Of a DNA stretch of 64,000 nt, positions 25,473-31,641 are shown in pieces (position 1 is the first letter of the stretch; every line of letters begins with the position of its first letter). Below the pieces are notes generated by a model. It saw nothing but the letters and a program-made list of their open reading frames with translations, searched no databases and was not told the DNA's origin. The position numbers and the translations under genes were made by a program. The stretch spans positions 326,047 to 390,046 of the forward strand of contig CASFKG010000002.1 of assembly GCA_949295325.1 (NCBI GenBank), read 5' to 3'. This DNA is from an uncultured bacterium (GTDB taxonomy: Bacteria > Bacillota_I > Bacilli_A > RFN20 > CAG-826).

Positions 25473-25897
25473 AGTCCGTTCTCCTTTTTCCTGAGATAGC
25501 TCTCGAGTATCGCCACGGCGGCCTGCTGGTCGATGACCATGTGCCTCTTGCGGCGGCTCAGGTCGGCTTCGAGCAGCCGTTTGGCGGCAAGGACCGTGGT
25601 GAGCCTTTCGTCCACGAGTTCGACCTCGATGCCGGGTATTTCGGAGAGCAGTTCCTCCCTGAACCGCTCCGAACTCAGGGCCCTTTCGCCCTTGCTGCCG
25701 TCCATGTTCAGGGGGTAGCCGAGGGCCACCTTGCGGATGCCTTCGCCTTCGAGCAGTTCCTTGACCCGCGCGACGGCACGCCGGTAGGCCCCTTCCGGGA
25801 AGCGGAAGTTCTCGCGGCCGTGGGGAATACCCAAAGCATCGCTCACGGCGATGCCGAGGGTCCTGGTCCCGAGGTCGAGCCCGAGGACTTTCTCCAT
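25469..25897 (-). CDS. ruvX: RuvX/YqgF Holliday-junction resolvase-like nuclease
   Basis: A 142-residue RNase H-fold nuclease implicated in processing the 5' end of pre-16S rRNA, and earlier proposed to be a Holliday-junction resolvase. The catalytic acidic residues lie in GLDLGTRTLGIAVSD, VDERLTT and DQQAAVAILESYL, and all are present. It overlaps alaS upstream and yrzB downstream by 1 to 4 nt. Confidence 0.94.
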   Translation of the reverse strand: MEKVLGLDLGTRTLGIAVSDALGIPHGRENFRFPEGAYRRAVARVKELLEGEGIRKVALGYPLNMDGSKGERALSSERFREELLSEIPGIEVELVDERLTTVLAAKRLLEADLSRRKRHMVIDQQAAVAILESYLRKKENGL

Positions 25898-28494
25898 CAG
25901 AGTTTCCCCTTGAGAAGCGATATGGCCTTCTCGATCCCGGAAATGTCGCCGGCGACTCCGCCGGCGTGGTTCGGGCGTCCCCCGCCGCGGCCGGAAAGCA
26001 GGGGCATTATTTCCCTAAGTCCGTCCCCGGCCTTGCATTTCGTTAGGGCCAGGCCGTTGCTCGAAAGGACGATCGGGAACTTCCCGGACTCCCCGCCCGA
26101 AAGCAGTATGAGGCTATCGGGCAAGAGGGCCTTCAGGGCGTCGCCGACTTCGTCTAGTCCCTTCATGTCGCGTCCCTCGAGTCGGGCATAGAGGAAGGAA
26201 ACCCCGCCGACGGTCTCGGCTTTGCCCGAGAGTTCCTTGGCCAGGTTCGCGGACTTGGACTCCCGGTAGGAGGAAATCCGCTTTTCGAGTTCCCGGTTCT
26301 TCTCGAGCAGCCCCTCGATCTTCCCTTCGAGGTTCTCGTCGGTCGAATCTAGCCGCCGGTCGGCCTTTTCGAGGTAGGCCGCCTTTTCCTTGAGGTAGGC
26401 GTAGGCACCCTTGGAGGTCCGGGCGGTGACGCGGCGGACGCCGCTTGAAACGGCTTCGTCGCCGGTTATGACGAAGAGGCCGATTTCGGAAGCGTCCTTC
26501 ACGTGGGTGCCGCCGCAGAGCTCCTTGGAATAGTCGCCGAAGAAGACCACGCGGACGCTGTTCGCGTACTTCTCGCTGAATTCGGCTTCCGCGCCGCACT
26601 TCAGGGCGCTACCGAGGTCCATGATGCGCGTTTCTTCCCTTAACCCGTTTTCGATGACGGAATTGACCTCCCTTTCGACCTCGGCGATGTCTTCCGCCGT
26701 CGGCTTGCGCGGGGCGGCGTAGTCGAAGCGGAGGTAGTCCGGCCCGACGTAGCTCCCCTCCTGGCTTACGTGCCCGAGCCTCCTGCTCAGGGCGGCGTGG
26801 AGCAAATGGGTAACGCTGTGGTTGCGCTCGATGAGCCTTCTTCTGAAGGCATCGATTTTGAGCTCGGCTTTATTGCCGGCTTTGATTACTCCCCTCGTCA
26901 CCTTGACGCGGTGGAGGTGCTGGCCGTGCGGGGCGGCGACGGTATCTATGACGTCCGCGGCGAAATCCTCGCCTTCGATATGGCCGGTGTCGCCGATCTG
27001 TCCGCCCATTTCCGCATAGAACGGGGTGGAAAGGAAGGCGACTTCGCCTTCGTCCTCGATTTGCTCGACCGCATGTCCGTCCTTGAACAAGGCGGCCACC
27101 TCGGAAACGCAGGCATCCGAATCATAGAGGAACTCGCTTTCGCCCTTATAGGCCAGTAGGTCGGCCGACTGGCTCGAGAAGCCGGAAGTCGAAACGCGGG
27201 CGCCCCGGGATTTTTCCCTGGCTTCCTCGAGCAGGGCGCTAAAGCCGTCGAGGTCGCAGGTCGCGCCCTTTTCGCGGGCGATTTCCACGGTCAGGTCGCT
27301 CGGGAAGCCGTAGGTATCGTAGAGCTTGAAGATGGTTTCGCCGTCTAATCTATCGGAGGCTTCCAGCAATTTGGAGAGCATTTCCTCGCCGCTTGAAAGG
27401 GTATGGAGGAACTTCTCCTCTTCCGCCATGATGAGTTCGGCGTCCTGCTTGGCGCTCTGCAAAAGTTCCGGATAGAAGTCGCTGTAGCTCTTGCTAACGA
27501 TGTCGACGAGCGTATGGATGAAGGGCTTGTCTATGCCGATTTGCCTGGCGTAGCGCATGGCGCGGCGGATGATGCGGCGGAGGACGTAGCCCCGGCCCTC
27601 GTTCGAGAACCTCGCCCCGTCGTTCAGGGCGAAGGTCAGGCAGCGGGCGTGGTCGGCGATGACGCGGAAGGACAGTTCGTGGCCCTTGTAGGGGATGCCG
27701 GAAACGCGCTCCGACTCCTCGATGATCGGGGTGAACAGATCGGTTTCGAAATTGGTCGGCGTGTTCTGCAGTATGCAGGCGATCCTTTCTAGGCCGGCGC
27801 CGGTATCGATGTTCTTGCTCGGAAGTTCCTTGTACTGGCTCCTGGGAACGCCCGGGACGGCGTTGAACTGGCTGAAGACGATGCCCCAGAGTTCGATGTA
27901 GCGGTCGTTTTCGATGTCGTCCCGGAGGAGTTTCACCCCCAGTCCCTCGGGGTCGTATTCGGGTCCCCTATCGAAGAAGACCTCGGTGTTGGGGCCGCAG
28001 GGGCCGGAACCGATTTCCCAGTAGTTGCTCTGAAGCGGAATGAGATGGTCCTTGGCGATGCCGTGCCGCTGCCAAAGTTCGAAGGATTCGGTGTCGGAGG
28101 GATTGTAGGTGACGTAGAGCCTTTCGATCGGAAGTCCGAAGCCCTTGTCCCCGTCGGTCAGTATTTCGCTGGCCCAGGCGATGACCTCCTTGCGGAAATA
28201 GTCGCCGATCGAGAAGTTCCCGAGCATTTCGAAGAAGGTGTGGTGCCTTGCGGTATGCCCGACGTTCTCGATGTCGTTGGTCCGGATGGACTTCTGGACG
28301 TTGACGAGCCTCCGGCACGGCGGTACCTCGGTCCCGTCGAAGTATTTCTTCAGTCCGGTGACCCCGGCATTGACGAAAAGAAGCGACTTGTCGCCTTTGG
28401 GTACCAGAGGCACCCCGGGGACGAAAAGATGTCCCTTGCCTTCGAAGAATTTGACCCAGCGCCTTCTTATTTCGTGTCCGCTTAGCGGTTTCAT
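25897..28494 (-). CDS. alaS: Alanine-tRNA ligase
   Basis: Charges tRNA-Ala. The 865-residue protein has the class II catalytic core (KKYFDGTEVPPCRRLVNVQK, GNFSIGDYF), the tRNA-recognition domain, the editing domain with the zinc ligands HSVTH and CGGTH, and the C-Ala domain. I chose the ATG at 28494: GAGGAG lies 8 nt upstream at ideal distance and the protein then begins MKPLSGHEIRRRW, as in relatives. An ATG two codons earlier is too close to that site. A T-box leader precedes the gene, so it should be induced when tRNA-Ala is uncharged. Confidence 0.97.
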   Translation of the reverse strand: MKPLSGHEIRRRWVKFFEGKGHLFVPGVPLVPKGDKSLLFVNAGVTGLKKYFDGTEVPPCRRLVNVQKSIRTNDIENVGHTARHHTFFEMLGNFSIGDYFRKEVIAWASEILTDGDKGFGLPIERLYVTYNPSDTESFELWQRHGIAKDHLIPLQSNYWEIGSGPCGPNTEVFFDRGPEYDPEGLGVKLLRDDIENDRYIELWGIVFSQFNAVPGVPRSQYKELPSKNIDTGAGLERIACILQNTPTNFETDLFTPIIEESERVSGIPYKGHELSFRVIADHARCLTFALNDGARFSNEGRGYVLRRIIRRAMRYARQIGIDKPFIHTLVDIVSKSYSDFYPELLQSAKQDAELIMAEEEKFLHTLSSGEEMLSKLLEASDRLDGETIFKLYDTYGFPSDLTVEIAREKGATCDLDGFSALLEEAREKSRGARVSTSGFSSQSADLLAYKGESEFLYDSDACVSEVAALFKDGHAVEQIEDEGEVAFLSTPFYAEMGGQIGDTGHIEGEDFAADVIDTVAAPHGQHLHRVKVTRGVIKAGNKAELKIDAFRRRLIERNHSVTHLLHAALSRRLGHVSQEGSYVGPDYLRFDYAAPRKPTAEDIAEVEREVNSVIENGLREETRIMDLGSALKCGAEAEFSEKYANSVRVVFFGDYSKELCGGTHVKDASEIGLFVITGDEAVSSGVRRVTARTSKGAYAYLKEKAAYLEKADRRLDSTDENLEGKIEGLLEKNRELEKRISSYRESKSANLAKELSGKAETVGGVSFLYARLEGRDMKGLDEVGDALKALLPDSLILLSGGESGKFPIVLSSNGLALTKCKAGDGLREIMPLLSGRGGGRPNHAGGVAGDISGIEKAISLLKGKL

Positions 28495-28502
28495 GTACAT
28501 TG

Positions 28503-28684
28503 CTCCTCTTGCTTGAAGGAACGGCTTCCGCCGCGGTACCATCCTTCTTCATTCCCCTTTCGGGAATGCCCTCGTTTATCCGCTTAACGCGCGGGACGGC
28601 GGCTATTGACCGCATAGCAAGGGAAGCGGCACGCCCCTAGGCCTTTCCACCCCGCGGCCTTCTCTATAAAGGGCTTTTCTTCCA
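28503..28684 (-). promoter_or_regulatory. Alanine T-box leader of alaS, apparently translational
   Basis: The minus strand carries the T-box core GGATGGTACCGCGG (28531-28544) inside an antiterminator-type helix, GAAGGA (28542-28547) with TCCTTC (28515-28520). Upstream a Stem I can be drawn: GGAAG (28679-28683) with CTTCC (28622-28626), and GCCC (28671-28674) with GGGC (28633-28636). Between them the internal loop holds GTGCCG, containing the alanine codon GCC (28628-28630) as specifier. There is no T run before alaS. Instead TTCCTT (28516-28521) can pair with the Shine-Dalgarno GAGGAG (28503-28508), which would hide it when no uncharged tRNA is bound. Confidence 0.85.
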
Positions 28685-28690
28685 AGGCGG

Positions 28691-28718
28691 ATTATACTAG
28701 GGATTGGATTTAGTTAAA
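28691..28718 (-). promoter_or_regulatory. Promoter of the alaS leader
   Basis: A perfect -10 TATAAT (28691-28696) with a weak -35 TTTAAC (28713-28718) 16 nt upstream, minus strand. The T-box Stem I begins within a few nucleotides of the expected start. The sequence TTTAGTTA occurs twice in this region. Confidence 0.65.
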
Positions 28719-28726
28719 GGGTTTAG

Positions 28727-30001
28727 TTAGAGGTGGGCTTTCTTATAGAAAGCGGTATCGTAGTAGCAAAGGTCCTTTTCCTCCGATGGATCGACGGGAT
28801 TCCCGTCCATGTCGTAATAATCGCAGGCCCTGCGGCCTTCCCCGTAAAGAAGGGGTTCTTCTTCCCCTTTGGCGAACCGGAAATGGAAATTCCCGGCCGT
28901 GCCGTTGAAATAGACGCGCTTGCGGCCCCCGCTTACGGGCAGATTGTTTTCGGCGGCGATGCGGGCGGCGATCCGGTCCATCGCCTGGTCGTAGGGATGC
29001 TGGGTGTAGTAGCGGCTTCCCTCCTGGTTTTCCGGGGTTATCGCCGAACTGGCAAATCCGTAGTCCGGCTTAATCCAGGCCAGAAACTCCGCGGAGTTGC
29101 CCCCGTAGGTCCTCGAACCGTGGTGGCTGGCCTTGTAGACCGTGGTCTCCGCCCCTTTCAAAAACCAGGCAGACCTATCTTCCAGGGAATTGAGTTCCAT
29201 GACCGAGGCTTCCGCTTCCGCGTCGGCCAAATCGCCCGCGGTGTAGAAAGCCGTATCGCCGGCCCTGACGAACATGGCGATGCTATCGAGATTGGGGTTC
29301 TCCTCGTTTCCGGAACTGCCGACCGCGGGGTAATAGCCGGTATCCAAAAAGCCGACGTAGGCCCCTTCGCCCATCTTCACGCAGGGGGCGGTTTCCAATA
29401 GTTCGGTGACCGGATGGTACTCGCTTCCCCTCTTTGTCCAATAGTCGCGGACCCCTTCTTCCCAGACAAGGGAATAGCTGTAGCCGTAGCCCGATACCCC
29501 GTTATCGACGATTAGGGAAACCGAATTTATCCCCGAGTTCTGCAGGGTTCCGTTTTCGAAACCCCCGTAATGGTCGCCGTGTTCGTGGCTCAAGACGAGA
29601 AGGTCGAGCACCCCGTCTTCGACGTTTTGAGACAGGAATTCCCCTAGGGCCCGCGCGGTCCCCTCGTAGCCGCCGTAGCCCATGTTGCCCCCGTCGATGA
29701 GTATGTCGAAGGAGGACGGCGCGCTTTCGCTTTCCTTGTAGGAAACGAACACCGCGTCCCCGTACTGGTAATAGGTTTCGAGGGCCACGATTTCGAGAAC
29801 CGAACCCTCGGGGCAGGCGGAAAAGGGAAGTTCCGGAAAGACGCGCGGCTCTTCCCCGCCTGAGGTATCCGAAGAACTCGGGATCGGGTCCGGGGCGCTA
29901 GGAGGATAATAGACCGAGGAATTCCTCGAAGGCGCCCCGCAGCCGGATAGCAAAAGCGAAAGGAAAGCGCCAAATAGGAAGATAGGCCTTCTACTAGGCA
30001 T
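28727..30001 (-). CDS. Lipoprotein with metallo-beta-lactamase fold (ComEC C-domain-like)
   Basis: A 424-residue exported hydrolase. The N-terminal signal ends in LLLSGC (lipid on C21), followed by a Ser/Pro-rich linker. The metallo-beta-lactamase domain has LSHEHGDHYGG, a later TAGDLADAE and KASHHGSRTYGG, giving a full set of likely metal ligands. The order of motifs resembles the C-terminal domain of ComEC (COG2333). Such extracellular hydrolases may cleave nucleic acids or other phosphodiesters; the substrate is unproven. It overlaps the second, similar gene by 8 nt, and no terminator is visible before the alaS promoter. Confidence 0.75.
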   Translation of the reverse strand: MPSRRPIFLFGAFLSLLLSGCGAPSRNSSVYYPPSAPDPIPSSSDTSGGEEPRVFPELPFSACPEGSVLEIVALETYYQYGDAVFVSYKESESAPSSFDILIDGGNMGYGGYEGTARALGEFLSQNVEDGVLDLLVLSHEHGDHYGGFENGTLQNSGINSVSLIVDNGVSGYGYSYSLVWEEGVRDYWTKRGSEYHPVTELLETAPCVKMGEGAYVGFLDTGYYPAVGSSGNEENPNLDSIAMFVRAGDTAFYTAGDLADAEAEASVMELNSLEDRSAWFLKGAETTVYKASHHGSRTYGGNSAEFLAWIKPDYGFASSAITPENQEGSRYYTQHPYDQAMDRIAARIAAENNLPVSGGRKRVYFNGTAGNFHFRFAKGEEEPLLYGEGRRACDYYDMDGNPVDPSEEKDLCYYDTAFYKKAHL

Positions 30002-31610
30002 CGCTCCTCACTCCGTCTTCGGGCCAGGTCCTGTTGGGGCGTCCGTCCCCGTAGCCGTCGGTCATCGAGAACCAGTCGCTATAGGGAAGGTAGGTATCGG
30101 AAACGCTGCCGTGCATGGAAACGTCTTCTTCGTTCCCGCCGGCGCTAAAGACGGTAATCTCCCCGTTAAGGGATTCGTAGTCGAGGCTGCCGTCGTTTAT
30201 GTCGTAACCTAGAGCCATGATCTTGTCGGTATAGGGTGCCCAGCGGTCTATGGACTGCTGGGTCGGGAAGGTGTTCTGATAGGCATCAGTGTACTGGGTG
30301 CAGCCGGCGTTGCAGGGCACGGCGATGTAGGTCGGGGTTATTTCCGCCATCAGGGCTTCGCTCGACGAAGTCGAGGAGCCGTGGTGGTTGGCCTTGTAGA
30401 AGACGCAGTGGCCGATGTCGTTGTTGGCCACGACGGATTCCTCCACTATTTCCTCGCTGTCGCCCATGAAGAGGTACTTGTTGTTGCCTTGCCTGAACAA
30501 AAGCGACACCGAGTAGTCGTTTTCGCTCGGGGCGTCGAGGTAATAGTCGCTTTCGAGCAGTTCCATCGTCAGGTTTTCGCCGAGCGTATAGACCTTGTTT
30601 GGTCCCGCGGTGCCGGTGGTCCCGGCCTCGAGGCACTCCGCGACCGTATAGGATTCGCCGGCCAGTTCCCGTTTCTCGTTTTCGTAACGCGCGTACTGCA
30701 GCGAAGTGGAATCGCTGCCCGCGAAATCGATCAGGGTCTTTACTTGGAAGGTATCGAGGATGCTCCCCTCGCTCATGGCGAAGAGGGCGATGTGGTCCTC
30801 GTGGGCGTGGGTCACCACGGCGTACTCGATGGTGCCGTCGGGTATCAGTTCCCGAAGCCGGGGTATGACCGTGGAAGCACTCGAACTATGGGCTCCCCCG
30901 TCGATGACGATGTCGTTACCGCCGGCCCTCACGTATATGCAGTCCCCGGCCCTATAGGTACCTAGTTCCAGTATCTTTATCTCGATATCGCTCACGCCGT
31001 CGGCGTCCCCGTAATAGCTCGAAGTGGAGTCCGGGGTTCCGGGTTCTTCGACCAAAGCCAGGACGATTTTGCAGACATTGAGCCTATCGCTCGAGGTGAG
31101 GGTTATCGAATCGGCGCTTATCCCTTCGCCGGTCGGCGAGAGAAAGGAAAGCGGGGTCGAATGGGTATCGTCGCTAATGTCTGGTTCGGAAACCTGCAGC
31201 ATTCCCAATTGCCTTTCGCCGAAAAGGGCATCGCCGGCTTCGAACGCCAGCGAAGCGGAATCGTCTTCGTTATATCTATAGGCGTAGACCTTGGCCCGCA
31301 GGATCTTGACCTTCCCCGAAAAGGCGATCGTGAGGCTTCCTCCTCCATCGACGGTCCCGAGCCTTACCGCGCTGCCGTTGGCCGCGAAGGCCCTTTGGCC
31401 GGAAATGTCGCGTACATTGACCCCGTAGGCGGTCGCGTCCCCCTCCTCGGCCGGAGAGTTACTCGTGTACTTGCTGGTCCCGAAGGTGATGTCGGCGCAG
31501 ACTACCTGTTCCTGCGTCGAGGAAAGCGATGTGGAAAAAGTTGCCGCGGAAGCCCCGAAAACGAGGGTGGTAACCGAGCCTAATATCAAGGGCAAAGCGT
31601 TTTTCCTCAT
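29994..31610 (-). CDS. Secreted metallo-beta-lactamase-fold protein
   Basis: A 538-residue exported protein. A Sec signal peptide (about 1-24, likely cleaved after SA in GASAATF) leads into an N-terminal beta-rich region of unknown type (about 25-190). A metallo-beta-lactamase domain follows with VTHAHEDHIAL, LFMGDSEE and YKANHHGSSTSSS as likely metal ligands. It is a distant paralogue of the next gene. The start is the ATG at 31610; TATAAT (31617-31622) ends 6 nt earlier and no Shine-Dalgarno is visible, so the transcript looks leaderless. Confidence 0.75.
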   Translation of the reverse strand: MRKNALPLILGSVTTLVFGASAATFSTSLSSTQEQVVCADITFGTSKYTSNSPAEEGDATAYGVNVRDISGQRAFAANGSAVRLGTVDGGGSLTIAFSGKVKILRAKVYAYRYNEDDSASLAFEAGDALFGERQLGMLQVSEPDISDDTHSTPLSFLSPTGEGISADSITLTSSDRLNVCKIVLALVEEPGTPDSTSSYYGDADGVSDIEIKILELGTYRAGDCIYVRAGGNDIVIDGGAHSSSASTVIPRLRELIPDGTIEYAVVTHAHEDHIALFAMSEGSILDTFQVKTLIDFAGSDSTSLQYARYENEKRELAGESYTVAECLEAGTTGTAGPNKVYTLGENLTMELLESDYYLDAPSENDYSVSLLFRQGNNKYLFMGDSEEIVEESVVANNDIGHCVFYKANHHGSSTSSSEALMAEITPTYIAVPCNAGCTQYTDAYQNTFPTQQSIDRWAPYTDKIMALGYDINDGSLDYESLNGEITVFSAGGNEEDVSMHGSVSDTYLPYSDWFSMTDGYGDGRPNRTWPEDGVRSDA

Positions 31611-31616
31611 GGCATG

Positions 31617-31641
31617 ATTATACAAAAAGCCTAAAGGCTTT
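31617..31641 (-). terminator. mnmA terminator abutting the next promoter
   Basis: Minus strand: AAGCCT-TT-AGGCTT followed by TTTG (31624-31641), then immediately the -10 TATAAT (31617-31622) of the secreted hydrolase gene. The terminator occupies the place of the -35 region. Confidence 0.75.

What the first reader, a model, noticed from the sequence alone, without database searches (positions are those of the whole stretch)
28494..28684. alaS T-box that appears to act on translation instead of termination
The T-box core, an antiterminator helix and a Stem I specifier loop with GCC (alanine) can all be drawn. But there is no T run between T-box and gene. The strand TTCCTT (28516-28521) can pair either with AAGGA upstream, forming the tRNA-binding helix, or with the Shine-Dalgarno GAGGAG (28503-28508). 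That is a ready two-state switch for ribosome access. Translational T-boxes are chiefly known from Actinobacteria, whereas Bacillota ones usually control termination.
Basis: partly seen in the sequence, partly recalled or inferred. Interest (0 to 1): 0.68.

Follow-up and report, generated by a model that had tools for sequence, protein, structure and literature searches.

The report
Alanine T-box acting on translation
Upstream of a bacterial alanyl-tRNA synthetase gene sits an RNA switch that senses uncharged alanine tRNA. Nearly all its relatives switch by stopping transcription, but this one has lost that stop signal and most likely hides or exposes the ribosome-binding site instead.

Summary
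On the minus strand, 28514-28694 is an alaS T-box leader (RF00230, 48.2 bits, E 1.6e-9, below Rfam's cutoff of 93). It has a GCC specifier, a UGGU bulge and a 6-bp antiterminator, and the genome has tRNA-Ala(GGC). No intrinsic terminator lies between the T-box and the ATG. The antiterminator 3' strand can instead form a 7-bp hairpin with the Shine-Dalgarno (SD). Of 79 alaS T-boxes compared across the order, 68 have a U-rich tract before the SD; the window and its closest relative G029 have none. These two have diverged a good deal (83% protein identity over 365 aa). Yet the strand-loop-SD segment is identical (20/20), Stem III is kept by compensatory changes in 5 of 7 pairs, and the spacer after the SD has drifted (2/9). 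So the T-box is under selection without a terminator, and SD control is the best explanation. Two cautions: the antiterminator strand resembles an anti-SD and can pair with the SD in many terminator-type leaders too, so the pairing alone is not above chance; and nothing here measures expression. It works like the actinobacterial translational T-boxes, in a different lineage and gene, with a long Stem I.

The parts
28691..28696 (-). TATAAT, candidate -10 box just upstream of Stem I
   Evidence: Read from sequence; also present in relative L006. The consensus scan reported no full sigma-70 promoter, so this is an inference.
28622..28683 (-). Stem I (long form): base helix GGAAG/CUUCC, AG-bulge-like AGAGA and distal GGUGGAAA
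   Evidence: RF00230 alignment; folds alone at -22.3 kcal/mol, and -22.4 in G029
28628..28630 (-). Specifier GCC (alanine)
   Evidence: Alignment of genus leaders shows GCC at this place in nearly all and GCU in L027 and L028, both alanine codons; tRNA-Ala(GGC) gene present in the genome
28595..28621 (-). Stem II / IIA/B region (approximate bounds)
   Evidence: Position relative to the GCGGGYAAUGCCGCC block of relatives
28550..28568 (-). Stem III, CAUUCCC/GGGAAUG
   Evidence: -11.1 kcal/mol; 5 of 7 pairs changed on both sides with pairing kept in G029
28515..28547 (-). Antiterminator/antisequestrator: A1 GAAGGA/UCCUUC, bulge UGGUACC, A2 GCGGC/GCCGU
   Evidence: Forms in the MFE of the local segment and the RF00230 alignment
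28502..28522 (-). Alternative sequestrator hairpin GUUCCUU-CAAGCAA-GAGGAGC, which buries the SD
   Evidence: -7.9 kcal/mol alone; 20/20 identical in G029 across the span from antiterminator strand to SD
28503..28508 (-). Shine-Dalgarno GAGGAG, 8 nt before the ATG at 28494
   Evidence: Sequence; retained in L006 and L007
25897..28494 (-). alaS, alanyl-tRNA synthetase, 865 aa
   Evidence: TIGR00344, 824.6 bits, cutoff 457

Best explanation
This is a tRNA-Ala-sensing T-box leader of alaS that regulates translation initiation. Uncharged tRNA-Ala(GGC) pairs with the GCC specifier and, through its ACCA end, with the UGGU bulge. That stabilises the antiterminator, here an antisequestrator, in which UCCUUC pairs with GAAGGA and the SD GAGGAG is left free. 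When tRNA-Ala is charged or absent, GUUCCUU pairs instead with GAGGAGC and hides the SD. The layout probably evolved from a transcription-terminating T-box: in relatives the same strand pairs with a GGGUGU-type arm followed by a U tract, and here that stretch is gone and the SD takes its place. Shown here: the T-box anatomy, a matching tRNA gene, absence of an intrinsic terminator, two mutually exclusive pairings, and selection on the element. Inferred: tRNA response, direction of control, and the fact that it acts through ribosome access.
For: RF00230 match. tRNA-Ala(GGC) gene ending ...CUCCACCA, whose discriminator A fits UGGU. No minus-strand terminator in the leader. Census of 79 alaS T-boxes in the order: 68 have at least 6 T in some 8-nt stretch between the antiterminator strand and the SD, nearly all of them 7; window and G029 have 4, and their gap from that strand to the SD is 7 nt against about 19-27 in most terminator-type leaders. 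Local energies: antiterminator -16.0; with its 5' strand blocked -14.1, and the SD bases then paired with P 0.72-1.0. Window versus G029: antiterminator strand to SD 20/20 identical, spacer from SD to ATG 2/9, linker plus Stem III 10/30 with Stem III pairing kept by double changes. In the same clade G028 and G021 have strong SD hairpins with different extra pairs, -10.8 and -12.1 kcal/mol, z -2.2 and -2.5.
Against: SD pairing by the antiterminator strand is possible in many terminator-type leaders as well and is not significantly stronger in U-poor leaders. Given the fixed strand and SD, the window hairpin is no better than gap-shuffled versions. The G029 hairpin is weak: -4.6 kcal/mol, z -0.5. 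Whole-leader MFE folds do not recover the full native T-box fold, so energies are only indicative. No expression data exist.
Confidence: 0.72

Rival explanations
1. The leader still works at the level of transcription, through Rho-dependent or otherwise non-canonical termination, or through RNA processing, with SD pairing incidental.
For: Ancestral mode in the genus appears to be termination. SD pairing is a by-product of the antiterminator sequence in many terminator-type leaders. Rho and RNase action cannot be seen in sequence.
Against: No terminator-like site on the minus strand of the leader. The stretch that carries terminator and U tract in relatives is absent, leaving a 7-nt gap between strand and SD.
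Confidence: 0.14
2. The switch has lost its output: the T-box is a relic and alaS is expressed constitutively.
For: Terminator lost; a T-box upstream of alaS is absent altogether in the related genome G010.
Against: In window and G029 all T-box motifs are intact and Stem III pairing is kept through 5 double changes while unconstrained spacers have diverged.
Confidence: 0.08
3. SD access is controlled by long-range pairing: GCUUCCCUUGCU (28627-28616, base of Stem I and start of Stem II) with AGCAAGAGGAGC, 11 of 12 pairs, opened when tRNA stabilises Stems I and II.
For: Present in the window's MFE fold. Both segments are identical in G029, including the loop AAGCAA that the local hairpin does not need.
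Against: Not in the MFE fold of G029. The pairing is lost in G004 (read). It would break the Stem I base. It would not discriminate charged from uncharged tRNA at the UGGU bulge.
Confidence: 0.06

Closest known systems
Actinobacterial ileS translational T-boxes (class II; Mycobacterium, Nocardia)
   Same: T-box bulge, antisequestrator competing with an SD hairpin, no terminator (PMC1262725, PMC7583486)
   Different: Those regulate ileS and mostly have intermediate or ultrashort Stem I. Here the gene is alaS, Stem I is long with the distal motifs, and close relatives of the same leader use terminators.
Bacillota transcriptional T-boxes (RF00230), including alaS leaders of this genus
   Same: Homologous leader: specifier GCC, Stem I/II/III, core AGGAUGGUACCGCG and 3' strand GUUCCUUC
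   Different: Terminator arm and U tract are missing; the SD lies 7 nt after the 3' strand
Hybrid leaders in the same order (valS of G064, G065, G069, G074; alaS of G043, G058, G048, G053)
   Same: SD lies within the strand that pairs with the antiterminator 3' strand
   Different: A U tract follows the SD directly, so the same hairpin could both terminate transcription and hide the SD

Membership tests
T-box leader (RF00230) | T-box sequence with UGGN bulge and antiterminator A1/A2 | tested here: met
   Core AGGAUGGUACCGCG; A1 6 bp, 7-nt bulge UGGUACC, A2 5 bp
T-box leader (RF00230) | Stem I specifier matching the regulated amino acid, with cognate tRNA | tested here: met
   GCC specifier upstream of alaS; tRNA-Ala(GGC) with 3' ACCA
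T-box leader (RF00230) | Score above Rfam gathering threshold | tested here: not met
   48.2 bits against 93. This threshold is an annotation cutoff, not a biological feature: the pheS, thrS and valS T-boxes of this genome also fall below it.
Transcriptional T-box | Intrinsic terminator overlapping the antiterminator | tested here: not met
   No U tract and no minus-strand terminator-like site in the leader
Translational T-box | Hairpin sequestering the SD, mutually exclusive with the antiterminator | tested here: met
   GUUCCUU/GAGGAGC shares UCCUU with A1; not above chance in itself
Translational T-box | tRNA-dependent SD exposure or translation | not testable with these tools
   Needs probing or a reporter
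Actinobacterial class II T-box | Short Stem I lacking the distal elbow-binding motif | tested here: not met
   Long Stem I of 62 nt with AGAGA and GGUGGAAA. PMC7583486 notes that a few translational T-boxes have long Stem I.

The most novel reading that the evidence does not exclude
In this order, T-boxes have repeatedly moved from transcriptional to translational control by fusing the terminator's 3' arm with the Shine-Dalgarno, in some cases through hybrid hairpins that both terminate and sequester, with the U tract serving as the SD-AUG spacer. The window shows the end state.
Probability: 0.35. Interest if true: 0.65.

Novelty: new variant of a known kind. Interest (0 to 1): 0.5.

Why it matters
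Translational T-boxes are known mostly from Actinobacteria, and reviews link them to truncated Stem I (PMC7583486). A translational T-box with a long Stem I, inside a family of close relatives that still use terminators, would give matched pairs for testing how an RNA switch changes its output while keeping its sensor. TBDB drew its translational set from a search of Actinobacteria and from class I hits with truncated Stem I, and does not predict sequestrators (PMC7778990), so such cases would be missed by current annotation.

Tried and rejected
(1) Conservation of the SD pairing as proof: the antiterminator strand pairs with the SD in many terminator-type leaders, and the group difference is not significant (Mann-Whitney p=0.12; the U-poor group in that test also took in leaders with interrupted U tracts). 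(2) Hairpin energy against shuffles with strand and SD fixed: a fraction of 0.31 of shuffles does as well as the window. (3) The idea that the genus terminator pairs with the 5' arm of Stem III (GCACC/GGUGU): median shuffle p 0.5, while the antiterminator 3' side gives 5-8 bp in most alaS leaders with U tracts, so ordinary terminators. (4) A first pattern scan suggested many U-less T-boxes in the order; on reading, most were terminator arms followed by a U tract. Only G093, G094, G122 and G123 (alaS) remained. (5) A first alignment with wrong coordinates was redone. (6) Laying the whole genome in the Python box was not available.

Full report
Observation. The element lies on the minus strand. 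Rfam's T-box model matches 28514-28694 over its whole length with 48.2 bits, E=1.6e-9, but below the gathering score of 93, so the default scan of the window lists nothing. The gene downstream, 25897-28494, is alaS (TIGR00344, 824.6 bits). The core, the A1 and A2 helices, Stem III and a long Stem I are all present. The specifier is GCC. The genome has a tRNA-Ala with anticodon GGC and the 3' end CUCCACCA, which fits both the specifier and the UGGU bulge.

No terminator. Between T-box and ATG there is no run of T. The terminator scan lists no minus-strand site in the leader; its one minus-strand hit lies inside the ORF, and the total equals chance. The SD GAGGAG (28508-28503) sits 8 nt before the ATG at 28494.

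Two states. The 3' strand UCCUUC closes the antiterminator with GAAGGA. As GUUCCUU it can also pair with GAGGAGC across a 7-nt loop, -7.9 kcal/mol. In the local segment the antiterminator state has -16.0 kcal/mol. With its 5' strand blocked the best fold has -14.1 and the SD bases are paired with probability 0.72-1.0. The two pairings exclude each other.

Relatives. Thirty-seven genomes of the genus are held. Their alaS leaders nearly all carry a U-rich tract after the T-box, most often ...GUUCCUUC...GGGUGUUUUAUUUU...GGAGG, an ordinary terminator pairing with the antiterminator 3' side. Of the other T-boxes in the genus census, nearly all have U-rich tracts; some pattern hits were not T-boxes. 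In a census of 79 alaS T-boxes out of 279 genomes of the order, 68 have at least 6 T in an 8-nt stretch between the antiterminator strand and the SD. Eleven do not: G000 (the window), G029, G021, G093, G094, G122, G123, G245, G246, G247 and G058. Of these, G246, G247 and G058 have a U tract directly after the SD. G028 has five U only as the loop of a 9-bp SD hairpin.

Selection. The alaS tree joins window and G029 with strong support (100/99). G004 is their sister, and the next clade contains G028, G021, G010 and three species with U tracts. Window and G029 proteins are 83% identical over 365 aa. In the leader the antiterminator-strand-to-SD segment is 20/20 identical, while the SD-ATG spacer is 2/9 and the linker plus Stem III 10/30; Stem III pairing survives through five double changes in seven pairs. 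The T-box is therefore kept for a function although no terminator exists. G010 shows that T-boxes can vanish here: its alaS has none.

What weakens the case. The antiterminator strand UUCCUYC is close to an anti-SD, so it can pair with the SD in many terminator-type leaders. The pairing is not significantly stronger in U-poor leaders (p=0.12) nor better than gap-shuffled sequence for the window. The G029 hairpin is weak. The argument therefore rests on the missing terminator, the short conserved gap and the selection on the element, not on the pairing alone.

Alternative partner. The window's whole-leader MFE pairs GCUUCCCUUGCU (28627-28616) with AGCAAGAGGAGC. Both pieces are conserved in G029, but the pairing is not in that species' MFE and is lost in G004. 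It would hide the SD too, but without sensing charging at the bulge.

Hybrids. In valS leaders of G064, G065, G069 and G074 and alaS leaders of G043, G058, G048 and G053, the SD lies inside the hairpin arm and a U tract fills the space between SD and ATG. The valS leaders of the window's own genome (L004) and of G029 (L103) also place a U tract right after the SD. Such a hairpin could stop transcription and block ribosomes, and suggests a route from one mode to the other. This is inference.

Known systems. SD-sequestering T-boxes were first proposed for actinobacterial ileS (PMC1262725) and reviewed as a smaller class mostly in Actinobacteria, usually with shortened Stem I (PMC7583486). TBDB searched for class II in Actinobacteria and in class I hits with truncated Stem I (PMC7778990). 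Four searches of the held open-access library listed no paper whose title or abstract reports one in Bacillota, but only a few were read, and key papers known to me (Vitreschak 2008, Gutierrez-Preciado 2009, Sherwood 2015) could not be read here (the ids tried are not held), so priority cannot be asserted.

Host. Gene order alaS-ruvX-small protein (weak NF010217 match)-greA, and a distant alaS relative labelled Mycoplasmatota bacterium zrk6 that has an alaS T-box with an ordinary terminator, fit a Bacillota/Mycoplasmatota lineage. That placement is inferred.

Noticed in passing
L004 (G000 valS), L103 (G029 valS): T-box leaders of valS in the window's genome and its closest relative have a U tract directly between SD and ATG (GGAGGUUUUUUAUG; GGAGGCUUUUUGCAUG). 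The SD may be part of a terminator arm.
   Followed up: partly
L197-L200 (valS of G064, G065, G069, G074); L053, L054, L045, L049 (alaS): Hybrid leaders: hairpin from the antiterminator 3' strand to the SD, followed at once by a U tract and the ATG. Possible dual terminator and sequestrator.
   Followed up: partly
L010 (G010 alaS upstream): alaS without any T-box in a genus where nearly all others have one.
   Followed up: no
L009, L011, L013, L015, L022, L024, L025, L026: alaS T-boxes with a much shortened Stem I, apparently lacking the distal elbow-binding motif; most still have U tracts, so short Stem I does not go with translational control here.
   Followed up: partly
L241 and L242 (G056): Nearly identical T-box discriminator regions upstream of an ileS-like and a pheS-like gene in one genome (a third copy at C4:248624 was not fetched); looks like recent T-box duplication.
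   Followed up: no
L104, L057, L059 and other pheS leaders of the genus: pheS leaders share GGCCGUCUUUUUU or similar before the U tract, with no clear partner in the antiterminator 3' strand.
   Followed up: partly
window 28727-31625, minus strand: Two adjacent genes upstream of the alaS leader; the nearer one (28727-30001) matches the ComEC metallo-beta-lactamase-like part weakly, the further one looks similar by eye.
   Followed up: no
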